Of a stretch of 64,000 bases of DNA, positions 2,616 through 38,835 are shown piece by piece. The stretch is taken from assembly GCF_013170845.1 (NCBI RefSeq), contig NZ_CP033367.1, positions 992,001 through 1,056,000 of the forward strand. The letters run 5' to 3'. Position 1 is the stretch's first letter. Every line of letters starts with the position of its first letter. The notes under the pieces are model-generated. The model was not told the DNA's origin. It searched no databases and saw only the letters and a program-made list of their open reading frames with translations. Source of the stretch: Mesorhizobium loti R88b. GTDB taxonomy: Bacteria > Pseudomonadota > Alphaproteobacteria > Rhizobiales > Rhizobiaceae. The position numbers and the translations under genes are program-made.

Positions 2616-3344
2616 TCAATTGCTCGCCGACAGCACCAGCACCGGCTTCTCGCTGTACAGCGCCGGAAACAGCTGCTTCAGGTTCGCCACCTTGGGCAGG
2701 TCGTTGTAGACGATGTAGGGATAGGTCGGGTTCAGCGTCAGGAAGTCCTGGTGATAGTTCTCGGCCGGATAGAAGGTCTTGCCGGTTTCGATCGTGGTGA
2801 CGATCGGCGCGCCAAACAGCTTGGTCTTGTCGAGCTGGCCGATATAGCTCTGCGCAATCTTTGCCTGCGCATCGTTTTCGGCAAAGACCGTCGAGCGGTA
2901 CTGGGTGCCGGAGTCCGGTCCCTGGTAGTTCAGCTGCGTCGGATTGTGGGCGACCGAGAAATAGACCTGCAGCAACTGGCCATAGGTCACCTTTGACGGG
3001 TCGTAGGTGATCTCGACGGATTCGGCATGGCCGGTGCGGCCGGTGCCGACAACCTCATAGACGGCGTTTTCAGCGCTGCCGCCGGTGTAGCCGGAGACGG
3101 CCTTGCTGACGCCCTTGACGTGCTGGAACACGCCCTGCACGCCCCAGAAGCAGCCGCCGGCGAAGATTGCCTTTTCGCTGCCGCTGACGGCCTTTTCATC
3201 CATTGCCGGCGGCGGGATGACCACCGCGTCTTCGGCTGAGCGCGCCGGGGTCTGCCAGAAGGCGGCCGCCGCCACCGCTGCAAAACCGAGCACGGCCAGC
3301 GCGCCGCGGGTAAAGAACGGCCGTGTCTTTTCGATACCGGTCAT
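2616..3344 (-). CDS. msrA: peptide-methionine (S)-S-oxide reductase MsrA, exported form
   Basis: MsrA reduces methionine-S-sulfoxide in damaged proteins. The catalytic motif GCFWG is at residues 64-68 with Cys65 as nucleophile, followed by the family features YTGG, GHAESVEITYDP and HNPTQLNYQGPDSGTQYRS, so the enzyme looks complete. The ATG at 3344 is chosen because AGGAG lies eight bases upstream; this gives 242 residues. Residues 8-36 are a hydrophobic export signal ending near PARSAED, so repair probably takes place in the periplasm. No MsrB domain is fused and no msrB gene is adjacent. Confidence 0.93.
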   Translation of the reverse strand: MTGIEKTRPFFTRGALAVLGFAAVAAAAFWQTPARSAEDAVVIPPPAMDEKAVSGSEKAIFAGGCFWGVQGVFQHVKGVSKAVSGYTGGSAENAVYEVVGTGRTGHAESVEITYDPSKVTYGQLLQVYFSVAHNPTQLNYQGPDSGTQYRSTVFAENDAQAKIAQSYIGQLDKTKLFGAPIVTTIETGKTFYPAENYHQDFLTLNPTYPYIVYNDLPKVANLKQLFPALYSEKPVLVLSASN

Positions 3345-3457
3345 GTTCTGATCTCCTGTTGTTGTTCCAATATATACGACGCGAGCCGAGAAACAGTTCT
3401 CAATTTGCCGTGCGGCGCTCCCCCTCATCCGGCTGGGTGAGGGGGAGCCTGCCTGGC

Positions 3458-3781
3458 TTACTGCGCCGGCTTCATCGCATCCGCCGCCGGCTTCATCGCG
3501 TCGGCGGCAGGCTTCATCGCGTCAGCCGCCGGTTTCATCGCATCAGCGGCAGGCTTCATCGCATTGGCGGCTGGCTTCATGGCGTTGGTGGCCATCGGGT
3601 CCGCCGGCTTCATCGCATCGGTTGCCGGTTTCATGGCATCAGCCGCGGGCTTCATCGCGTTGGCGGCTGGTTTCATGGCGTTGGTGGCGTCGTCGGCGCG
3701 GGCGATGCCACCGGCCAGCAGCGCCGTCGAGCACAGAGCAAGGGCAAGTGCGGGCAGCGTCAGGCGGGAAAGAATGGTCAT
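3458..3781 (-). CDS. secreted low-complexity protein with MKPAADA repeats
   Basis: A 107-residue protein: signal peptide of about 29 residues (LTLPALALALCSTALLAGGIARA) and then almost only tandem heptads of the form A-M-K-P-A-A-D/N. About eleven MKP units are visible, interrupted once by DPMATN. It resembles the small bacterial proteins annotated as pentapeptide MXKDX repeat proteins, although the unit here is longer. Regular methionine and lysine spacing suggests an extended or helical periplasmic peptide, possibly binding metals; that is speculation. The DNA repeats number more than ten, so the locus is prone to length change. Its ATG at 3781 follows an AGGAGAC site. Confidence 0.7.
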   Translation of the reverse strand: MTILSRLTLPALALALCSTALLAGGIARADDATNAMKPAANAMKPAADAMKPATDAMKPADPMATNAMKPAANAMKPAADAMKPAADAMKPAADAMKPAADAMKPAQ

Positions 3782-29632: not shown

Positions 29633-30646
29633 TCAGTTGGAGGCCAGCGCCTCGGTGACGTATTTCGATGTCACGTATTTCGAATAGTCGGGCAGCACGG
29701 CGTCGACCTTGCCTTGCTCCTTGAGGAAGGCGGAGGCCGCCGCGACCGCCTTGACCGTGCCGCCGCCGAGGAACTTGTCGGAGGCCTGCTCCTCCAGCGT
29801 CGGGAAGACATAGCCCTTCAGCAGCTCCGGCACCTCTTCCAGCTTGGCGCCGGTGAGCTTGGCGATCTTGCCGGCCTGCGGCGAGGACACCGACCAGGCA
29901 CCGGGCTTGGCCAGGTACTCGGCATAGGCAGCACCCGTCACCTTGACGAAGTCGCGCACCGCTTCCGGGTTCTTCTCGGCGAAATCGGTGCGCACGATCC
30001 AGGCGTCGAAGGTCGGTGCGCCCCAGGCGGCGACCTGCGAAGAATCCAGCACCACCTTGCCTTTCGTCTTGATCTGGCCGAGCGCCGGATCCCAGACATA
30101 GGCCGCATCGATGTCGCCGCGCGCGAAGGCGGCGGCGATTTCCGGCGGCCGCAGGTTGAGGATCTCAACCGACTTCGGATCGACATTCTCGTGCTTGAGC
30201 GCGGCAAGCAGGCTGTAATGCGTCGTCGAGACGAAGGGCACGGCGACCTTCTTGCCGGCGAGGTCGGCGACTTTCTCGATGCCGGCGCCGTTGCGGGCGA
30301 CCAACGCCTCGGACGGCCCGATCAGGCCGACGACGAAGATGGTCTGGATCGGCAGTTCGCGGCTCGCCGCCGCTGCCAGCGGGCTCGAACCGACATAGCC
30401 GATATCGACCGAGCCGGAAGCGACCGCGGCAATGACATCGGCGCCGGAATCGAATTTGCGCCAGTCGATGCTGGCCTTGGTCGCCTTTTCATAGGTGCCG
30501 TCGGCCTGCGGCACTTTGGAAGGCTCGACCACCGTCTGGTAGCCGATGGTGATCTTCAAATCTTCGGCCAAGGCCGGGCTGAGGATGGCGGCACCAGCAA
30601 GGGCGGCGGACGACAGAAGAAGGATGCGTCGCGAAATGGTGGACAT
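29633..30646 (-). CDS. tauA: taurine ABC transporter substrate-binding protein
   Basis: The 337-residue protein is TauA-like: signal peptide (ILLLSSAALAGAAILSPALA), ITIGYQTVVEPSKVPQADGT, the SVDIGYVGSSPLAAAASREL segment and AAYVWDPALGQIKTKGKVVL. The ATG at 30646 has GGAG eight bases before it; longer in-frame starts would add 44 non-signal residues. It is first in the tauABC order. No taurine dioxygenase (tauD) or Tpa/Xsc gene adjoins, so taurine catabolism may rely on SsuD or distant enzymes. Confidence 0.93.
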   Translation of the reverse strand: MSTISRRILLLSSAALAGAAILSPALAEDLKITIGYQTVVEPSKVPQADGTYEKATKASIDWRKFDSGADVIAAVASGSVDIGYVGSSPLAAAASRELPIQTIFVVGLIGPSEALVARNGAGIEKVADLAGKKVAVPFVSTTHYSLLAALKHENVDPKSVEILNLRPPEIAAAFARGDIDAAYVWDPALGQIKTKGKVVLDSSQVAAWGAPTFDAWIVRTDFAEKNPEAVRDFVKVTGAAYAEYLAKPGAWSVSSPQAGKIAKLTGAKLEEVPELLKGYVFPTLEEQASDKFLGGGTVKAVAAASAFLKEQGKVDAVLPDYSKYVTSKYVTEALASN

Positions 30647-30701
30647 CAAAGGGCTCCATGAAAACAGAGAAAACCGGATTGCCCTATGATAGTCCGCTAA
30701 T

Positions 30702-30718
30702 TCTATGGTTCTTGTAGA
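30702..30718. promoter_or_regulatory. TCTA-N9-TAGA dyad upstream of tauA
   Basis: The same 4-9-4 dyad as at 27578-27594, here 56-72 bases before the tauA start. The coding-strand sequences share CTCTAC and ATAGAAnTA at fixed distance. Confidence 0.5.
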
Positions 30719-30862
30719 GTTAAATCCTTCCAACAAACCCGCCTTCGTTGGAAAAAACCCACCGATGACGCGCGCCAAGGCGGATAGGGCGGCTGTGGCA
30801 GGCCCGGCCTCACATCACCGCGCGGCCTCGGGGGCGAAATCGTCGGGCTGGAACCGTCGCTG

Positions 30863-30878
30863 TCCACCGAACGGTGGA
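30863..30878. promoter_or_regulatory. palindrome TCCACC-N4-GGTGGA upstream of the Cys-cluster gene
   Basis: TCCACCGAACGGTGGA is a perfect 6-4-6 inverted repeat inside a 34-base block (30854-30887) that recurs with about four changes at 34032-34065 upstream of the yadA-type gene. The interval 30647-31108 between tauA and the Cys-cluster gene otherwise holds no supported gene. Confidence 0.6.
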
Positions 30879-31108
30879 TGACGCGAAATCCTTTTCATGG
30901 TGGTCTGCGGTCTGCATCTGCCCCGATTCAATGGGGACCCGACAGGCTCGACGGAGTTCTACGGATCTCTGGAGGGATGAAAAATGGCCATTGGCTGCTA
31001 ACGCCTCACTGGGCGGCCAACATTGTCGGCATCGTGGTTATGTTTCGTTTCTGCCGTGGAATCTTTACCATCGGATAAGGCATAAATAGCTTGTGTATGG
31101 AGGATGCG

Positions 31109-31447
31109 ATGACAGTCGAGGATGATTGCGATTGCAATACAATTTGCCCACAATACCAGCACTGTATTTGTATTTATCACTATGATGAAGGATATTGTGA
31201 CTGCACTTGCGGCCCTCTGCAGATTTTATCCGAGCGAGTCGCAAAGCGGCCGTCGGACAGCATCATAAACATTTGCGTCAAGGGTGCCGAATTGTCGGCG
31301 GTGGCGGAGTTCCTGAGCAGATACAGCGAGGAAGAATTGTTCATCCCGGCCGCACGCGCGAAGACAAAAATCTCCCTGGAGATCAAGAAGGTGTCGCTGG
31401 CCAGCGTGATCGAGCAGGTTGGCTTGCGGGTCGGCCTGCCCGGTTGA
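31109..31447 (+). CDS. small cysteine-cluster protein with STN-like C-terminal segment
   Basis: The ATG at 31109 is preferred because GGAGG lies five bases upstream; the product has 112 residues. Eight of the first 34 residues are cysteine, at positions 7, 9, 13, 19, 21, 30, 32 and 34, forming CDC, CIC and CDCTC motifs, with His18 and His24 between them. There is no signal peptide. Residues 57-108 (ELSAVAEFLSRYSEEELFIP, ISLEIKKVSLASVIEQVGLR) resemble the secretin/TonB short N-terminal (STN) fold. A metal- or Fe-S-binding head is plausible, but I do not recognise this architecture. AT-richer than its neighbours. It converges with a LuxR-type gene. Confidence 0.65.
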   Translation: MTVEDDCDCNTICPQYQHCICIYHYDEGYCDCTCGPLQILSERVAKRPSDSIINICVKGAELSAVAEFLSRYSEEELFIPAARAKTKISLEIKKVSLASVIEQVGLRVGLPG

Positions 31448-31525
31448 AACGACCCCACGCGCCGGACCGCTTGAGGTGTTCGCCGATTCGAGATCGCCGG
31501 CGCTGCCATTGGCAATCGGCTTTGC

Positions 31526-32674
31526 CTATGAAGCCATACCAGCCAGGGGCGACGCGAGCGACGCGGCAAGCTGCACCAGTTCGGCCTGCCGCCGCGTGCC
31601 GGTCTTATCGAACAGCCGTAGCAGATGCGTCCTGACCGTGCTGCGGCCGATGTCGAGAGCATCGGACGTCTCCTCCACCGTGCGGCCCGCCGCGATCTGC
31701 TCGAAGACGCGCGCTTCGGCCGGCGTCAGGCCGAACAGCGCCGCGACGAGTGCTGTCGGCGCGACAAAGGGCGTATCCGCGCGTGCGACAAACACCGCCG
31801 CGACCACGCTGGCATCGAACGCCCCGCGCCCCGGGCGCAGCGGCAGGACGTGCAAGGCTCCGGCCGAGCCGTCCCGCCAACGTATCGGAACCCCCAGCCC
31901 TTTGCGGTCGATGGCGCTCTCGTCCTGCGCCGCCTGCGACACGGCCACGGCCAGCGCGCTGGACACGGCGGCGACGCTGGCGCTGAGAACCCCGTTGCGG
32001 ATGTTCAGCAGCTCTGCCGTGGCGACGATGTCCTGGGCAGCTGGATTGGCATGCACGACATGCAGATCGGCGGTGGTGAGAAAGATCGGCGCCGTCAGCG
32101 TGTCGAGCACCGTCTGGAAGGTCGACCGGGCAATCGCCGCCATGTCCAGCAGCCGGTTGATCGTCGCGGCGCGCTGGAGATGCGGGATCAACAATCGGGC
32201 GGCCTCGATCTCATATTCACCGATCGGCTCCGCGCTCTCGTGACGGCCAAGGCCCAGCGACCCGAAACCACGCTCGTCGCGAGCGAGCCCCAGCCCCATG
32301 ACATCGACCAACCCCCGCGGTTTGGCCCACTCCAGCGAGTAGCGGTTGGTCGTACTCGCTTCTGGATTGACGCGGCTCATCACCGCGGGCTGATCCAACG
32401 GCAGCGCCAGCAGCACCGCCAGCCCACCCCACTGGTCGATAACATCAACGGCGTAGTCCGCGATCCTGTCGACGTAGTCCTGCGGCATGTTGCTGGTCAC
32501 GTTGAGCAGCACTTCGCCCGACGGCAACGCTTGCAGGTTGAGGGCTGCGTTCTCGAAATCGAGCGCGATGCGGATCTCTTCAATGGCGACGGCCCAGCGC
32601 GAGGGATCGATCGCGGCGTCGTAGATCAGTCCGATCAGTTCGGACAACTGAGCCATCGAGAGAGCAGAACGCAT
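31526..32674 (-). CDS. LuxR-type HTH regulator (paralogue 1)
   Basis: A 382-residue protein: an N-terminal region (SELIGLIYDAAIDPSRWAVA... SGEVLLNVTSNMPQDYVDRI) that may be a sensor, a PAS-like middle (TAPIFLTTADLHVVHANPAA) and a C-terminal LuxR helix-turn-helix (FGLTPAEARVFEQIAAGRTV, DALDIGRSTVRTHLLRLFDK). It lacks a receiver domain, so control is likely by ligand. The ATG at 32674 is chosen because MRSALSM matches the start of the neighbour paralogue. The C-terminal half is almost identical to that of 32772-33920, with 195 identical bases (32017-32211). Confidence 0.85.
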   Translation of the reverse strand: MRSALSMAQLSELIGLIYDAAIDPSRWAVAIEEIRIALDFENAALNLQALPSGEVLLNVTSNMPQDYVDRIADYAVDVIDQWGGLAVLLALPLDQPAVMSRVNPEASTTNRYSLEWAKPRGLVDVMGLGLARDERGFGSLGLGRHESAEPIGEYEIEAARLLIPHLQRAATINRLLDMAAIARSTFQTVLDTLTAPIFLTTADLHVVHANPAAQDIVATAELLNIRNGVLSASVAAVSSALAVAVSQAAQDESAIDRKGLGVPIRWRDGSAGALHVLPLRPGRGAFDASVVAAVFVARADTPFVAPTALVAALFGLTPAEARVFEQIAAGRTVEETSDALDIGRSTVRTHLLRLFDKTGTRRQAELVQLAASLASPLAGMAS

Positions 32675-32685
32675 CGCCACCACCC

Positions 32686-32702
32686 TTGCTGAACTGCAAC
32701 AA
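32686..32702. promoter_or_regulatory. operator-like palindrome upstream of LuxR paralogue 1
   Basis: TTGCTGAACTGCAACAA is a variant of the TTGCTGC-N3-GCAGCAA site found twice upstream of paralogue 2. It ends 12 bases before the start codon. Confidence 0.45.
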
Positions 32703-32734
32703 AATGAACGCATGATCCGAATTGGGTAAGTCTC

Positions 32735-32753
32735 CAATCTCCGACGGAGATTG
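32735..32753. promoter_or_regulatory. perfect 9-1-9 palindrome between the two LuxR genes
   Basis: CAATCTCCGACGGAGATTG lies 18 bases downstream of the paralogue 2 stop and about 60 bases upstream of the paralogue 1 start. It has no U-tract on the coding strand, so an operator is as likely as a terminator. Confidence 0.45.
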
Positions 32754-32771
32754 TCGCCCGCCCAAAGCCGG

Positions 32772-33920
32772 TCAGACGCCGGTGGCTACGGGCGACGCGA
32801 GCGACGCCGCAAGCTGAACCAGCTCGGCCTGTCGCCGCACGCCGGTCTTCTCGAACAGCCGCAGCAGATGCGTCCTGACCGTGCTGCGGCCGATGTCGAG
32901 AGCATCGGACGTCTCCTCCACCGTGCGGCCCGCCGCGATCTGCTCGAAGACGCGTGCCTCGGCCGGCGTCAGGCCGAACAATGCCGCGACGAGTGCTGTC
33001 GGCGCGACAAAGGGCGTATCCGCGCGTGCGACAAACACCGCCGCGACCACGCTGGCATCGAACGCCCCGCGCCCCGGACGCAGCGGCAGGACGTGCAACG
33101 CTCCCGCCGAGCCATCCTTCCAGCGTATCGGAACCCCCAGCCCCTTGCGGTCGATGGCGCTCTCGTCCTGCGCTGCCTGGGACACCGCGACGGCCAGTGC
33201 GCTGGATACGGCGGAAACGCTGGCGGTGAGAACCCCGTTGCGGATGTTCAGCAACTCGCCCGTGGCGACGATGTCCTGGGCAGCTGGATTGGCATGCACG
33301 ACATGCAGATCGGCGGTGGTGAGAAAGATCGGCGCCGTCAGCGTGTCGAGCACCGTCTGGAAGGTCGACCGGGCAATCGCCGCCATGTCCAGCAGCCGGT
33401 TGATCGTCGCGGCGCGCTGGAGATGCGGGATCAACAATCGGGCGGCCTCGATCTGCAGATCGCTGATGGGAGGGGCATCGACATGGCGGCTGAAGGACAG
33501 CGAGCCGAGGCCACGCCCATCCCGCGCGAGCGGCAGTGCCAGGGAATCGACCATGCCTTGCGGTTTGCCGCACTCCACAAAATAGCGGTTCGTCGTGGTG
33601 TCGAGGTTGGGATTGAGCTGGCTCAACACCGCCGGCCGATCCATCGGCAGCGAGCCTACCACCGCCATGCCACCCCATAGCTCGACAATTTCAGCGCCGT
33701 AGCTGACCATCTGGTCGACATAGGGCTGCGGGATGTTGCTGGTCACGTTGAGCAGCACTTCGCCCGACGGCAACGATTGCAGGCGGATGGCGGCGGTCCC
33801 GAAGCCAAGCGCGATGCGAATCTCATCGATCGCGACGGGCCAGCGCGCGGGATCGATCGCGGCGTCGTAGATCAGTCCGATCAGGTCGGACAACTGAGCC
33901 ATCGAGAAGGCAGAGCGCAT
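32772..33920 (-). CDS. LuxR-type HTH regulator (paralogue 2)
   Basis: A 382-residue tandem paralogue of 31526-32674. The N-terminal half differs widely (SDLIGLIYDAAIDPARWPVA, NIPQPYVDQMVSYGAEIVEL, LSFSRHVDAPPISDLQ), but from the PAS-like domain (FLTTADLHVVHANPAAQDIV) to the HTH (RSTVRTHLLRLFEKTGVRRQ) it is nearly the same, including identical DNA at 33260-33454. Different sensors would therefore read out through the same DNA-binding domain. ATG 33920 is chosen by alignment to MRSALSM. Two palindromes, 33931-33969, sit just upstream. Confidence 0.85.
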   Translation of the reverse strand: MRSAFSMAQLSDLIGLIYDAAIDPARWPVAIDEIRIALGFGTAAIRLQSLPSGEVLLNVTSNIPQPYVDQMVSYGAEIVELWGGMAVVGSLPMDRPAVLSQLNPNLDTTTNRYFVECGKPQGMVDSLALPLARDGRGLGSLSFSRHVDAPPISDLQIEAARLLIPHLQRAATINRLLDMAAIARSTFQTVLDTLTAPIFLTTADLHVVHANPAAQDIVATGELLNIRNGVLTASVSAVSSALAVAVSQAAQDESAIDRKGLGVPIRWKDGSAGALHVLPLRPGRGAFDASVVAAVFVARADTPFVAPTALVAALFGLTPAEARVFEQIAAGRTVEETSDALDIGRSTVRTHLLRLFEKTGVRRQAELVQLAASLASPVATGV

Positions 33921-33930
33921 CGCAACATCC

Positions 33931-33969
33931 TTGCTGCACGGCAACAAAATCTTTGCTGCACGGCAGCAA
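33931..33969. promoter_or_regulatory. two tandem operator-like palindromes upstream of LuxR paralogue 2
   Basis: TTGCTGCACGGCAACAA (33931-33947) and TTGCTGCACGGCAGCAA (33953-33969) are 22 bases apart, about two helical turns; the second is a perfect 7-3-7 inverted repeat. They begin 11 bases before the start codon, a position suited to autorepression. Confidence 0.55.
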
Positions 33970-34040
33970 AATGAACGCATGATCCGGATCGGGCAAGCCC
34001 CATCATCTTGGGCGCTACCATCGAACTGTGGCCGTCGCTA

Positions 34041-34056
34041 TCCACCGAATGGTGGA
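34041..34056. promoter_or_regulatory. palindrome TCCACC-N4-GGTGGA upstream of the YadA-type gene
   Basis: TCCACCGAATGGTGGA, second copy of the 30863-30878 palindrome, within a 34-base block that also shares CCGTCGCT before and GACGCGA after the palindrome. It is 254 bases before the adhesin start and 120 bases from the divergent LuxR paralogue 2. Confidence 0.6.
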
Positions 34057-34309
34057 AGACGCGACATTTCCTTTGTGTTCGTTTGCGTCCGTCGGGTGCT
34101 GCGGTCCTGCGCGGAATTCGGGGGCATCGGTGTTTGCAAGGCGAGTGCTGTTCGGGGACGGCGGCACAACCGTCGAGTGCGCAACTGCTTGATTGTCAGC
34201 CCAGCCATGGCCGGAGCACCTCCCGCCCGGCCCGGCCAACGTGCGGGACCGACAGCCGCCGGCAGTACGACTTGGTCGATTGTCTGGCAATGAAGCGAGG
34301 GCTTTGAGC

Positions 34310-35692
34310 GTGATTGCAGAAACGAGCGAACGGATGGGCGTGAGCGGATCGGAAGACGCTGCGACTGGCACAATAAGCAGAACAATCGCGATTGGGCGCC
34401 AAGTGCTAAAAAGCATAGAATCGGCCGCGGCGGCGGTTTTCGGTGGGCTGGCATCCTCCCAAGTGCCCACCCTCGGGACCGCAGCCATCATGGTGGTCGC
34501 GGCCGCCGGCTTTGTCGCCTTCGCGCCGGGCACAGCACGCGGCGGCGGGTTCATCTGCCAGGATTTCAATGGGTTGAATGGTGGAGCGGCTTACGCCGGG
34601 GGGTCGGCCAATTCTGTGGCATGCGGAGTGTCCGCCAATAGCAATGGCTTTGTGTCGACAGCCGTCGGCTGGGCCGCAGGTGCTATTGCCGACTACAGCG
34701 TGGCCCTCGGCTACCTCGCAAACGCCGGTTGACATTATGACTTGATCTCGACGACTAATTACAACAATTCCAACACAACGGCCATCGGCACCGAAGCTCA
34801 GGCCGGCGCCAGCGCGACCGGCCAGGCCAACGCCACGGCCCTTGGCGCTTCCGCCCAAGCGAATGCCTTGAACGCCACCGCGCTCGGCGCCGGCGCGACG
34901 GCCAATTTTTCCAACTCCACCGCCATCGGCCAGGGCGTGCAAACGACGCGTGACAATCAGGTCATGCTTGGCACGGCCAGCAACACCTACACGCTGGCCG
35001 GCATCACTTCGCAGGCGAGCACGGCGGCCCAGGCTGGCCCGACCTATCTGGTGACGACGGACGCCGCCGGCAATCTGGCGGCGTCGACATTCGATATGGC
35101 AACCCTGCAAAACCTGCCGGCCGAGGTCGCTCAGAACAGCACCGACATCAGCAATCTGAACACCACGGTGAGCAATCACACGACGCAAATCGCCGCCAAC
35201 ACCCAAGAACTCGCCGGCCACGAGACGCGCATCACCAACAATACGACGCAGATCGCCGCCAACACCACCGAGCTCGCCAATCATGAGACGCGTATCACCA
35301 ACAACACCAACGCGATTGCGGTGCACACCACCGAGATCGCGGACCTCGACACCAGGGTGACCACCAACACCAGCAACATCACCCAGCTCGACGGCCGCGT
35401 CGGCGCGCTCGAAGCCGGCGTTCCGGATCTCGGCAACCAGATCAGCGAAACCCGCACCGAGGCGCGTGCCGGCACGGCGCTGGCATTGGCCACGGCGGGG
35501 CTGCGTTACGACGACAGGCCCGAAAAGCTGTCGCTCGCCGGCGGCTTCGGCCACTTCAAGGGTCAATCCGGCCTGGCGCTCGGCCTTGGTTACAACACCA
35601 GCGAGGATTTCCGCCTCAACGCCGCTGTCTCTGCCACCACCAACCACGGCGATGTCGGCGTCAGCGTCGGCGCATCATGGACGCTGAATTGA
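34310..35692 (+). pseudogene. YadA-type trimeric autotransporter adhesin interrupted by in-frame TGA
   Basis: One 461-codon frame holds a complete trimeric autotransporter except for a TGA at 34730-34732. It has a long N-terminal extension with a hydrophobic export segment (AAIMVVAAAGFVAFAPGTARG), head repeats of YadA type (DYSVALGYLANAG, NSTAIGQGV, NATALGASAQA), a coiled-coil stalk of 15-residue units (TTQIAANTTELANHETRITN) and a C-terminal YadA anchor (RAGTALALATAGLRYDDRPE to SVGASWTLN). The stop falls inside a head repeat; after it the frame continues as HYDLISTTNYNNSN with no good start. The start is GTG 34310 (GAGGG upstream) or ATG 34334. Either a nonsense mutation, a sequencing error or readthrough. 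Confidence 0.8.
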
Positions 35693-35804
35693 GGCGGCCA
35701 GCGTGATCCGGAGTGCGAGGGGGCTGGCTTGAAAAAGCCGCCGGCGGCCGCGTTCCCACAGACGCGGTCGCCTGTCTCCCCTGCCCGAGGCGCGATTCCG
35801 ATCA

Positions 35805-36449
35805 ATGCTCAGAGGCCACATGAAGCACCCGCGATTCTTATCAATAGGGCGGATGACCCATACCGCCGTGACAGGCCTGCTGCTGGCCGGTCTGTTGGCA
35901 GCATCCGGGGGTGTTGCGGAGGCGCAGACCAAAAAAACCGAGAAGAGCGACAAGGTCCGCGCGGCTCATCCGGCCAGCATCGACCGCAACGGCGTGCTGA
36001 TCCTGATCCGCGGCACGCTGCTGGCGCTCGATCAGGCCAACAAGACCGGTAACTACACGGTGCTGCGCGATCTCGGCTCGCCGAATTTTCAGGCCAACAG
36101 CGCGGCAGGGCTCGGCGACATCTTTGCCAACCAGCGCAAGCAGGCGCTCGACTTCGGCGCCGTCGCGGTGCTCGATCCGCAACTGACCCTGCTGCCGCAG
36201 ATCGAGCCGAACGGCATGCTGCATATGGCTGGCTTTTTCCCGTCGGTGCCAATGCAGGTCAATTTCGAGCTTCTGTTCGAGCCGGTGAACCGGCAGTGGA
36301 AGATTTATGGCGTATCGGTCAACCTCACCTCGGGAGCACCGCAGGCGCCCGACACACCTGTCGCCGAGCAATCCAAGCCTGACGATACGGCCCCGCCGCC
36401 TGACGCGCCCTCGATGGCCGTGCAGCCGAAGAAGGCAGCAAAACCTTAA
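35805..36449 (+). CDS. secreted hypothetical protein with Pro/Ala-rich tail
   Basis: The 214-residue product has an N-terminal export signal (THTAVTGLLLAGLLAASGGV, cleavage near AEAQT), a central domain (ILIRGTLLALDQANKTGNYT, LRDLGSPNFQANSAAGLGDI, FFPSVPMQVNFELLFEPVNR, QWKIYGVSVNL) that resembles a cystatin/NTF2-like fold, and a proline-, alanine- and lysine-rich tail (PKKAAKP). I do not recognise a named family. It begins 112 bases after the adhesin stop in the same direction and may be cotranscribed. Confidence 0.7.
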   Translation: MLRGHMKHPRFLSIGRMTHTAVTGLLLAGLLAASGGVAEAQTKKTEKSDKVRAAHPASIDRNGVLILIRGTLLALDQANKTGNYTVLRDLGSPNFQANSAAGLGDIFANQRKQALDFGAVAVLDPQLTLLPQIEPNGMLHMAGFFPSVPMQVNFELLFEPVNRQWKIYGVSVNLTSGAPQAPDTPVAEQSKPDDTAPPPDAPSMAVQPKKAAKP

Positions 36450-36473
36450 AGCGGCATGCGCATTCAGCCGCCC

Positions 36474-37118
36474 CTACGACAGCAACTCCAGGCGCAGGGC
36501 GCTGGCCAGCAGCGACAGCGCGAAGACGAACAGGCCCGAACTGAAGACAAGATTGACGGTGCGCAGCCCGCGCGCGCTCAGCCGCTTGCGCAGGAGGTTG
36601 GTGACCAGTGTCAGCGTTGTCCACCAGGTGGCCGAGCCGAGCAGCACGCCGGCCGAGACAAGCGCCAATGTTTGCCAGGACGGCATGGCCGCGCCCAGGA
36701 TTCCCGGCGTCAGCGTGAAGAAGCCAAGCAGAGTCATCGGGTTGCCCAACGTCCAGATCAGCCCGGTGACATAGGCCCGACCCGAGGGCATGCGCCGCTG
36801 CAACGCGGTGTCCAGCGACGGCGTCAGCCGCGCCGCCGTCACCGCCATGTAGAGCAGGAATATGCCGGCGCAGAGCTGCAGCAGCATGTGCCAGCCGATG
36901 AGCACATGCGCCACCGCGCCCAGCCCCGCGGCGGCAACGGAGGCGTAGACCGAATGCGTGGTCGCCGCGCCATAGCCGGTCGCCAGACCTGGCCCGATGC
37001 CGCCGGCGATCGTGCGCTGCACGCATAAGAGCCCGGTGGGACCGATGGGAGCCGCGACCGCGAACCCCAGCAAGGCCCCACGCATCACACTGAGGAAAAG
37101 GTCTGCTGTACCCGACAT
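36474..37118 (-). CDS. LysE family translocator
   Basis: The 214-residue protein has six predicted membrane helices and LysE/RhtB landmarks: LLGFAVAAPIGPTGLLCVQR near the N-terminus with the GPxxxL motif, GYGAATTHSVYASVAAAGLG, and TLGNPMTLLGFFTLTPGILG with the NP motif. Members export amino acids or derivatives. ATG 37118 gives MSGTADLFLSVMRGALLGF; the longer in-frame start adds Arg-rich residues. It is convergent with the 35805-36449 gene and its substrate is unknown. Confidence 0.88.
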   Translation of the reverse strand: MSGTADLFLSVMRGALLGFAVAAPIGPTGLLCVQRTIAGGIGPGLATGYGAATTHSVYASVAAAGLGAVAHVLIGWHMLLQLCAGIFLLYMAVTAARLTPSLDTALQRRMPSGRAYVTGLIWTLGNPMTLLGFFTLTPGILGAAMPSWQTLALVSAGVLLGSATWWTTLTLVTNLLRKRLSARGLRTVNLVFSSGLFVFALSLLASALRLELLS

Positions 37119-37644
37119 GCGAACAGATCTTCCGTTGGCCGCACGTCGTCGGGGTTCCCGGCCAGGCAATACCTGGGCCAGATGCTGGCCAAGGCCAGCA
37201 ACGGTCGCCCCGCTTTCGTGAGCTGCTTCGACATTCTTGCGGCAAGACGGCCGTTGGCGGGGCTGACGAGCACGTCGTCTTGAAGTTTCTCTCCAAGTAT
37301 TAGCTAGATGTAATGTGTCTACGCGTATAGACGCCGTTCAGTTCGGTGAGCTTTAGACCCGACTAATGTGTCGACGCATTACTGGCGGCGGAAAATCTGC
37401 AATTCTCCTGATGCGCGTCACGTGCCTTGAACTCAGTCCAACCTCAAGCCGATGCACCCAATCACAAATGAACGATCGCGGCGTCCACCATTTGGATTAG
37501 GCTTGACTCCCAGCTTCTATTTTTTTCTACTGACTTTCAGTTGGCTTTCGGTGCGCCCCACCTCCATGTCGACTCCAGACAGACAAGTCGCGAAGTCGAA
37601 CGAGGATTGATCCCGTTGAAGCGATATCGGCGCAGCAGCACGCG
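37119..37644. other. intergenic region without supported gene
   Basis: The 526 bases between the LysE-type gene and LuxR paralogue 3 are divergent upstream DNA. GTGTCTACGCGTATAGACGC (37317-37336) is a near palindrome, and TTTTTTTCTACTGAC-like AT-rich stretches occur near 37520. I see no coding region. Confidence 0.4.
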
Positions 37645-38835
37645 ATGTCTGACCGGGGCCGCCAGCCCATGTTGGTCAGCATGACTGACCGATCCTATCC
37701 GGCGGAGCGCATTTCAGAACTCATCGGCACCATTTACGACTGCGTCCTCGATCCGGACCGATGGCCATCGGTCGTCGACAACATTCGACGGGAGCTGGAG
37801 TTCTGTTATGCGGTTCTGGGGGTGTATCCGCTTCCGGGCGGCGAAGTTACGCTCGGCGTCGCGACAGGCATCGATTCGGTGAAGCTCGGCGAGCTTCCCG
37901 CCTATGGCCAGGATCTGGTGGACCTCTGGGGTGGCGACATCAGGGTCAAACAATATCCGCTCGAGGAGCCGATCGCGCAGTCCCGGGCCGTGCCGGATTC
38001 GGCACTTGTCGCCAGCCGCTATTTTCTCGAATGGGCCCAGCCGCAAGGGGTGGTCGACGCGGTTGCGATCGGGCTGGAGCGCAATGCGCGCATGGTCTCC
38101 ACGCTTTCGTTCGGCCGGCACGAGACGGTCGGCATTGTTGGCAACGGGGAACTTGACGCCTTGCGTCTTCTGGCGCCGCACTTCCGGCGCGCCATCGCCA
38201 TTGGCCAGATGCTCGAATTGCAATCGATTGCCGCCGCCAACGTGACATCCGTGCTGGAAAGCCTCTCTGTCGGCGTCGTACTGGTCGATGAATTGATGGC
38301 CTTGATCCATGCCAATCCGGTCGCCGAGTCCATGCTGGCCCGCAAGGAACCGATCAAGGTCAGCAATGGCCGCGTTGTCGTCTCGGATGCCTCGCCCGCT
38401 ATCTCGTCGGCGATAGAGGATGCGGTCGCCCAGGCGGCCCGCGACGAGGCAGCGCTCGGACGGCGCGGCGGCACCGGGTTTCCGACGCGCGGCCTCTCGG
38501 GCGAGCCTCGCATCATTCATGTCCTGCCGCTGAAAAGGCGAGAGAGCCGTCCCGGCCTGTTCCGGCGGGCGACAGCGGCTCTTTTCATCGCCCCGGTCGA
38601 CAGACCGATAAGCCTGCCATTCGATGCTTTCGCCGCCCTCTACGGCCTGACGCCCGCCGAGGTTCGGATCGTGGAACTGATCGTCGCCGGCCAGACCCAG
38701 CGCGAGATCGCGAAATCGCTTGGCCTGGCCAGCGCCACTGTGAAGACGCACCTTCTGCATGTTTTCGAGAAGACCGACGTCCGGCGCCAGGTCGATCTCG
38801 TCCGGCTTGTCGCATCCCTGGCATCACCGCTCTGA
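37645..38835 (+). CDS. LuxR-type HTH regulator (paralogue 3)
   Basis: A 396-residue homologue of the tandem regulators at 31526-33920: RISELIGTIYDCVLDPDRWP at the start, a PAS-like middle (LVDELMALIHANPVAESMLA) and a C-terminal HTH (YGLTPAEVRIVELIVAGQTQ, SLGLASATVKTHLLHVFEKT). It is clearly more diverged and on the other strand. ATG 37645 is used; ATG 37681 aligns better with the paralogue starts and is an alternative. No TTGCTGC palindrome is seen upstream. It lies between the adhesin and the autotransporter, so regulation of either is plausible. Confidence 0.85.
   Translation: MSDRGRQPMLVSMTDRSYPAERISELIGTIYDCVLDPDRWPSVVDNIRRELEFCYAVLGVYPLPGGEVTLGVATGIDSVKLGELPAYGQDLVDLWGGDIRVKQYPLEEPIAQSRAVPDSALVASRYFLEWAQPQGVVDAVAIGLERNARMVSTLSFGRHETVGIVGNGELDALRLLAPHFRRAIAIGQMLELQSIAAANVTSVLESLSVGVVLVDELMALIHANPVAESMLARKEPIKVSNGRVVVSDASPAISSAIEDAVAQAARDEAALGRRGGTGFPTRGLSGEPRIIHVLPLKRRESRPGLFRRATAALFIAPVDRPISLPFDAFAALYGLTPAEVRIVELIVAGQTQREIAKSLGLASATVKTHLLHVFEKTDVRRQVDLVRLVASLASPL

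What the first reader, a model, noticed from the sequence alone, without database searches (positions are those of the whole stretch)
30854..34065. Shared 34-base block with a TCCACC-N4-GGTGGA palindrome upstream of two unrelated surface-cluster genes
Seen directly: the block CCGTCGCT[G/A] + TCCACCGAA[C/T]GGTGGA + [T/A]GACGCGA occurs at 30854-30887 and 34032-34065 with about four differences over 34 bases, much more alike than the DNA on either side. It lies about 230 bp before the Cys-cluster gene (31109) and 254 bp before the YadA-type gene (34310). This suggests one operator for a small regulon. The natural candidates for its binding protein are the two LuxR-type proteins encoded between the two sites, whose DNA-binding halves are nearly identical. 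That link is inference.
Basis: partly seen in the sequence, partly recalled or inferred. Interest (0 to 1): 0.72.

Follow-up and report, generated by a model that had tools for sequence, protein, structure and literature searches.

The report
LuxR operator beside surface-protein genes
Two near-identical DNA palindromes in a Mesorhizobium genome are very probably docking sites for the LuxR-type switch proteins encoded between them, and the same site lies beside related switches and exported-protein genes in other Hyphomicrobiales bacteria.

Summary
In detail: two 34-base blocks (30854-30887, 34032-34065) differ at 4 of 34 bases and share TCCACC-GAAY-GGTGGA; they hold the only two exact copies in the 7.2-Mb genome. 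The palindrome follows the LuxR gene rather than its partner genes: it lies upstream of LuxR relatives only 31-55% identical, in another genus and another family, mostly beside exported-protein genes (YadA, OmpA-domain, lectin, other secreted-looking proteins). In a held-out search the two best LuxR hits outside this genome carried it at the same distance; 17 weaker rows did not. Toward the partner gene the palindrome is followed by a conserved N-G-(A/C)-C, plausibly a -35 box, which would put a LuxR dimer at a class-II activator position. The two LuxR paralogues keep different sensor halves, while in the window and strongly in one relative (not in a third genome) their DNA-binding halves look homogenised, as if two signals met at one operator. 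No binding or expression data exist here; the signal and the sign of regulation are inferred. The bare palindrome is at chance level genus-wide. In this strain YadA is interrupted by an in-frame stop, and the Cys-cluster protein is not shown to be a surface protein.

The parts
30863..30878 (+). Site 1: TCCACCGAACGGTGGA, proposed LuxR operator of the Cys gene (block 30854-30887)
   Evidence: 19 bases CTG+palindrome invariant in 5 of 5 genomes
30879..30883 (+). TGACG, oriented flank of site 1 toward the Cys gene, proposed -35 element
   Evidence: the -35 role is inference
31109..31447 (+). Cys gene: 112-aa protein with a Cys-rich N-terminal part, function unknown
   Evidence: no Pfam or NCBIfam match; found in 5 of 146 genus genomes, the same five that have two sites; no signal peptide by eye; model poor, pLDDT 59.8
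31526..32671 (-). LuxR1, second gene of the tandem LuxR pair; start codon uncertain
   Evidence: GerE PF00196; no exact palindrome in the 400 bp upstream
32772..33917 (-). LuxR2; start codon uncertain (an upstream in-frame ATG lies at 33980)
   Evidence: GerE PF00196; palindrome 123 bp upstream; model pLDDT 82.6
34041..34056 (+). Site 2: TCCACCGAATGGTGGA, proposed operator shared by LuxR2 and YadA (block 34032-34065)
   Evidence: 29 bases invariant in 6 of 6 genomes
34057..34061 (+). AGACG, oriented flank of site 2 toward YadA, proposed -35 element
   Evidence: the -35 role is inference
34310..35692 (+). YadA-type (trimeric autotransporter) gene, interrupted in this genome by an in-frame TGA at 34730-34732
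   Evidence: YadA_anchor and YadA_head in the downstream piece 34742-35692; open in five orthologues; pieces searched apart
35820..36449 (+). Exported-looking protein that follows YadA at most related loci
   Evidence: no Pfam or NCBIfam match; export judged by eye
37484..37499 (+). TCCACCATTTGGATTA upstream of LuxR3: left half intact, right half degenerate, followed by TTGAC at 37503-37507
   Evidence: inside a 31-base stretch invariant in 5 of 5 genomes; LuxR3-like genes in G499 and G689 have the exact palindrome
37645..38835 (+). LuxR3, about 41% identical to LuxR2
   Evidence: GerE PF00196

Best explanation
The palindrome TCCACCR-N2-YGGTGGA is the operator of a subfamily of LuxR-type regulators without autoinducer-binding or receiver domain (PAS/GAF-like sensor half plus GerE-type HTH), encoded here by LuxR2, its tandem paralogue LuxR1 and, more distantly, LuxR3. 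A dimer is proposed to bind two 7-bp half-sites with a 2-bp gap, as NarL does. Site 2 would control the divergent LuxR2-LuxR1 genes (autoregulation) and YadA; site 1 would control the Cys gene. On the target side the palindrome abuts an NG(A/C)C element best read as part of the -35 box; the palindrome is then centred near -43, a class-II activator position, so activation of the target is the likelier output. Shown: conservation of the site, its link to this LuxR subfamily, the oriented flank, and two conserved sensor types. Inferred: binding, autoregulation, the -35 role, the sign of regulation, and an unknown ligand or stress signal.
For: Only two exact sites in the genome. Site invariant in 5-6 relatives. 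Exact palindrome in 8 of 20 distant regions examined, plus one with 1 mismatch, and in 9 of 30 non-redundant LuxR upstream regions, no dyad occurring more than once in any of 100 shuffles. Held-out test: the two best non-own hits of an order-wide profile search carry it 120-121 bp upstream, 17 weaker rows do not. Another genus: G414. Partner gene exported-looking, by eye, at 12 of 13 distant loci. Oriented flank: +2 G in 19 of 19 rows, +3 A or C in 19, +4 C in 18; flank on one side at 6 of 7 LuxR-linked places against 5 of 22 others. A sister LuxR group with a changed recognition helix has a changed dyad, TCCCC-N6-GGGGA. Geometry equals NarL 7-2-7 sites (PMC4549865, passages).
Against: No binding or expression data. 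The bare palindrome is not enriched genus-wide (49 places against 65 for the control). G207 LuxR (45% identical, nearer than several carriers) has no site. LuxR1 and the downstream G107 copy have none (both are second in a tandem). LuxR3 has only half a site. Site 2 itself and the second G029 site are not complementary at the innermost pair. Identity alone does not separate carriers from non-carriers: G029 and G065 C10 carry it at 31-32%. G037 keeps site 1 although its Cys gene and LuxR1 are broken. YadA is interrupted in this strain. Many rows are orthologues and not independent.
Confidence: 0.77

Rival explanations
1. Same operator and regulator, but LuxR represses: it covers the -35 region of the target and of its own gene until a signal releases it.
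For: The palindrome abuts the proposed -35 and lies between divergent genes; NarL is described as repressor at one promoter and activator at another (PMC4549865, passages).
Against: A centre near -43 fits an activator better than a blocker; this is inference, since no start site is mapped.
Confidence: 0.25
2. Another transcription factor binds the palindrome, and the LuxR genes are merely among its targets.
For: No binding data; the palindrome marks promoters of LuxR genes and of exported-protein genes, which would fit a separate regulator.
Against: It follows the LuxR subfamily across genera and one other family with changing neighbours, and the dyad changes together with the LuxR recognition helix in a sister group. 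No other regulator gene was found shared by these loci, though no systematic search for one was made.
Confidence: 0.08
3. The two blocks are a duplicated promoter stretch from the same event that duplicated LuxR, without regulatory meaning for the Cys gene.
For: Similarity runs over 78 nt at 72%; LuxR1 and LuxR2 are a tandem duplication.
Against: G024 has a single LuxR but both sites, and G013 a duplicate-free LuxR with only site 2. Both sites are kept, each with its own centre (GAAC or GAAT), in five genomes. Distant loci carry only the palindrome and NGMC, not the outer block.
Confidence: 0.07
4. The palindrome acts as an RNA hairpin (leader element or attenuator).
For: A 6-bp stem with a 4-base loop could form.
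Against: The innermost pair is complementary in 8 of 8 distant exact sites found without requiring it, which a 2-base RNA loop could not use; no Rfam match at E up to 0.1 in 30600-37700; no terminator-like hit at either site.
Confidence: 0.03

Closest known systems
NarL-type 7-2-7 operators bound by GerE-type HTH dimers (PMC4549865, passages seen)
   Same: 16-bp inverted repeat of two heptamers 2 bp apart; a GerE-type HTH; the engineered NarL site quoted there, TACCCCTAAAGGGGTA, has the same geometry
   Different: Half-site TCCACCR instead of TACCCCT-like; no receiver domain in the LuxR proteins; partner genes are exported proteins, not respiratory genes
Quorum-sensing LuxR proteins (TraR, CviR) with lux-type boxes
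   Same: GerE HTH; weak fold similarity over the model (TM-scores at most 0.50 in the 50 rows listed)
   Different: No Autoind_bind domain match; longer proteins (about 380 aa); operator differs from lux-type boxes (recalled)
Mesorhizobium alhagi yadA under salt stress (PMC4302635, abstract and passages seen)
   Same: A Mesorhizobium YadA-domain gene, strongly salt-induced (log2 fold change 4.57), with delayed growth in salt when knocked out
   Different: Whether that locus has this LuxR or palindrome was not tested; the word LuxR does not occur in its main text

Membership tests
LuxR/GerE (NarL-FixJ-type HTH) regulators | GerE HTH domain above the Pfam cut-off | tested here: met
   LuxR1 32.8, LuxR2 35.3, LuxR3 42.4 bits, cut-off 23.5
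Acyl-homoserine-lactone quorum-sensing LuxR | Autoinducer-binding domain | tested here: not met
   No such Pfam family at E up to 0.001 in LuxR1, LuxR2, LuxR3; TraR model matches mainly the HTH side, far below its cut-off
NarL/FixJ two-component response regulators | Receiver domain | tested here: not met
   No receiver domain in the Pfam scan
NarL-type 7-2-7 operator | Inverted heptamers separated by 2 bp | tested here: met
   Innermost pair complementary in 8 of 8 distant exact sites and at site 1; site 2 and the second G029 site are 6-4-6 only
NarL-type 7-2-7 operator | Bound by the regulator as a dimer | not testable with these tools
   Needs gel shift or footprint
Autoregulated LuxR divergon | Operator between the regulator gene and a divergent target | tested here: met
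   Site 2 in the window and YadA loci; G414, G499, G689 and the secreted-protein loci; not so for site 1, which is beyond LuxR1
Surface-protein regulon | Target genes encode exported proteins | tested here: inconclusive
   YadA, OmpA-domain and lectin domains by Pfam; other partners judged by eye; the Cys protein shows no export signal by eye and no family match
Repetitive extragenic palindrome or mobile element | Many dispersed copies | tested here: not met
   Two exact copies in 7.2 Mb

The most novel reading that the evidence does not exclude
A two-sensors-one-operator device: paralogous LuxR proteins keep two different sensor halves, each conserved across species, while gene conversion keeps their DNA-binding halves alike, so that two signals are read out at one operator type that controls changeable surface proteins across the Hyphomicrobiales; and the operator is a legible code (TCCACC, TACACC or TCCCC half-sites according to the recognition helix). 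The homogenisation is clear in G107, weak in the window and absent in G037, which is why the probability stays low.
Probability: 0.35. Interest if true: 0.68.

Novelty: new variant of a known kind. Interest (0 to 1): 0.56.

Why it matters
It gives a concrete binding site for a group of LuxR-type regulators that have neither an autoinducer-binding nor a receiver domain, and links them to adhesin and other exported-protein genes that may shape how rhizobia and relatives meet plants, soil and salt. The natural variation in dyads and recognition helices makes a DNA-recognition code testable, and the paralogue pair makes a signal-convergence hypothesis testable.

Tried and rejected
Dispersed repeat: rejected, only two exact copies in 7.2 Mb. 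RNA element: no Rfam match at E up to 0.1, geometry against it. The consensus promoter scan gave one hit in the region (at 31290-31262), not at the sites, and at shuffle level.

More regulon members in this genome with 1 mismatch: chance level (12 against 13). Palindromes away from LuxR genes in the genus: of 29 such places in 26 genomes, 22 were held as loci; none has a LuxR homologue on the stretch held (at most 1.5 kb on each side; E up to 1e-4) and 5 have the oriented flank; 7 were not looked at. For G001 and G048 the ORF lists showed no evident exported partner.

The Cys protein could not be placed: no family match and a low-confidence model. A first dyad scan on 16 hand-picked upstream regions (12 of 16) was partly guided by known hits and was replaced by the scan.

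Literature: searches (regulator, operator, adhesin; Mesorhizobium adhesins; LuxR gene conversion) listed no paper that describes this operator as far as the listings show; only open-licence papers are held, one search listed 10 of 19, and apart from passages of PMC4302635 and PMC4549865 only listings were seen.
Full report
WHAT IS THERE. The window is bases 992001-1056000 of a single-contig 7.2-Mb genome. Gene order: tauA (taurine-binding protein, TIGR01729) on the minus strand; site 1; the Cys gene (31109); LuxR1 and LuxR2 in tandem on the minus strand; site 2; a YadA-type gene; an exported-looking gene (35820); a membrane-protein-like gene not searched in families (36474-37169); LuxR3 (37645); a large autotransporter (39512). 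The two blocks differ at 4 of 34 bases; the best 34-nt match is 30/34 against at most 23 in 60 shuffles.

CLOSE RELATIVES. A 32-base pattern with up to 3 mismatches is found in 6 of 146 genus genomes, 11 places, none for the reversed control. The Cys gene is found in 5 of 146, exactly the five with two sites; G013 has site 2 only. In alignments, 19 bases at site 1 are invariant in 5 of 5, 29 at site 2 in 6 of 6, and 31 upstream of LuxR3 (with TCCACCATTTGGATTA and TTGAC) in 5 of 5. Site 1 always has GAAC in the middle and site 2 always GAAT. G024 has one LuxR gene between the two sites.

DISTANT RELATIVES. LuxR2 matches 86 of 146 genus genomes at E up to 1e-20. Of 20 distant LuxR or YadA regions examined, 8 contain an exact TCCACC-N4-GGTGGA, one has 1 mismatch, and 11 have none; the 11 have LuxR homologues of about 25-36% identity, but carriers G065 C10 and G029 are also only 31-32% identical. 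An open scan of 6-bp dyads in 250 bp upstream of 30 non-redundant homologues gives TCCACC-N4 in 9 of 30; in 100 shuffles no dyad occurs more than once. In the family search (15 of 297 genomes at E up to 1e-40), G414 in another genus has the exact palindrome 64 bp upstream, G176 has TACACCACGTGGTGTA, and G207 (45% identical) has none. Held-out test: a profile of 12 members was run on 297 order-wide genomes (17 with a match at E up to 1e-60). The two best non-own hits, G499 and G689 in another family and closest to LuxR3, both carry exact TCCACCGTTTGGTGGA 120-121 bp upstream; 17 weaker rows (one of them from the window's own genome) do not carry it within 300 bp.

PARTNERS. Across the palindrome from LuxR lies a YadA-type gene in the window and its orthologues and in G121 C88, G126, G108, G010 C8 and G065 C10; a secreted-looking Cys-containing protein in G010 C55, G121 C259 and G065 C26 (1 mismatch); an OmpA-domain protein in G414; an exported-looking protein without Pfam match in G499 and G689. 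G029 has one site just upstream of LuxR and a second between an OmpA-domain gene and a ricin-B-type lectin gene. G065 C1 shows no evident exported partner. That is 12 of 13 distant loci, with export signals judged by eye.

ORIENTED FLANK. In 19 rows read toward the partner gene (three orthologue sets shown by two or three members each; G013, G037, G093, G065 C1, the first G029 site and the LuxR3 sites were not put in) the base after the palindrome is followed by G in 19 of 19, A or C in 19, C in 18 and G in 14; on the LuxR-facing side no position from -1 to -12 exceeds 12 of 19. The palindrome with NGMC occurs at 28 places in 20 of 146 genomes against 3 for the control; 20 of the 28 are the LuxR loci from which the form was derived, 8 are elsewhere. 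The flank is present on one side at 6 of 7 LuxR-linked places and at 5 of 22 others. I read it as part of a TTGAC-like -35 box, which puts the palindrome centre near -43; that is inference.

REGULATORS. LuxR1, LuxR2 and LuxR3 have a GerE HTH and no autoinducer-binding or receiver domain. The LuxR2 model (pLDDT 82.6, pTM 0.54) resembles phytochrome PAS/GAF regions and LuxR-type quorum receptors only weakly (TM-scores at most 0.50 in 50 listed rows); I take it as a PAS/GAF-like sensor with unknown ligand. In a tree of 30 proteins the palindrome carriers fall into four groups of 100/100 support whose mutual order is unresolved, while a 15-protein group without it is separate at 91/87; the carrier label needs 5 changes, as few as in 3 of 500 shuffles. 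A sister set at about 36% identity has TCCCCTGTTTGGGGGA upstream in 12 of 14 loci and a one-base variant in a thirteenth; the six of these whose helix was printed have THLDN where the TCCACC group mostly has THLL(R/H/K).

TWO SENSORS. As DNA, LuxR1 and LuxR2 of the window are 80.3% identical in the sensor half and 94.3% in the DNA-binding half; orthologues (LuxR1 with G024; LuxR2 with G013, G037, G093) are 95.2-96.2% in the sensor half and 90.8-93.4% in the DNA-binding half. In G107 the two copies are 77.5% and 95.4%, against 83.5-86.0% to the window's copies in the DNA-binding half. In G037 the pattern is not seen (89.5% within, 88.1-90.8% between; one copy is broken). So two sensor types are kept apart across species, and homogenisation of the DNA-binding half is strong in G107, slight in the window, absent in G037.

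LIMITS. Nothing here shows binding or expression. The bare palindrome is at chance level genus-wide (49 places in 38 of 146 genomes against 65 for the control). LuxR1 and the downstream G107 copy lack a site, LuxR3 has half a site, G207 has none. YadA is interrupted in this strain; in G037 the Cys gene and LuxR1 are broken although site 1 is exact.

KNOWN WORK. NarL binds 7-2-7 sites as a dimer and both represses and activates (PMC4549865, passages). A Mesorhizobium alhagi yadA gene is strongly salt-induced and its loss delays growth in salt (PMC4302635, abstract and passages); its link to this LuxR type is untested. Searches listed no description of this operator; the library holds only open-licence papers.

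VERDICT. A real, conserved operator of a LuxR subfamily, with site 1 a less usual target. The kind of system (regulator, operator, divergent exported gene) is known; the operator, its spread over changing surface genes and the sensor pair make it a new variant.

Noticed in passing
33930-33972: Two tandem copies of a TTGCTG-N5-CARCAA dyad between LuxR2 and site 2; one copy in G037 and G107, two in the others aligned. A second possible regulator site for the LuxR genes.
   Followed up: no
30728-30753: TTCCAAC-N12-GTTGGAA dyad upstream of tauA, arms invariant in 5 of 5 genomes: a likely separate operator of the taurine transporter genes.
   Followed up: no
34310-35692: YadA-type frame interrupted by an in-frame TGA only in the window's genome among six orthologues.
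   Followed up: partly
L101:3429 and L107:4842: Other LuxR-YadA pairs (LuxR about 27% identical) have a different, longer dyad, GAACAGTCG...CGACTGTTC, in the same place.
   Followed up: no
L108:3933 and 3339-3698: In G143 the TCCCC-type dyad lies between LuxR and a small divergent exported-looking protein.
   Followed up: partly
35820-36449: A 209-aa exported-looking protein without family match follows YadA at most related loci and is conserved where YadA is.
   Followed up: no
L026:7272-8020: In G037 an insertion has removed most of the Cys gene, yet site 1 keeps an exact palindrome.
   Followed up: partly
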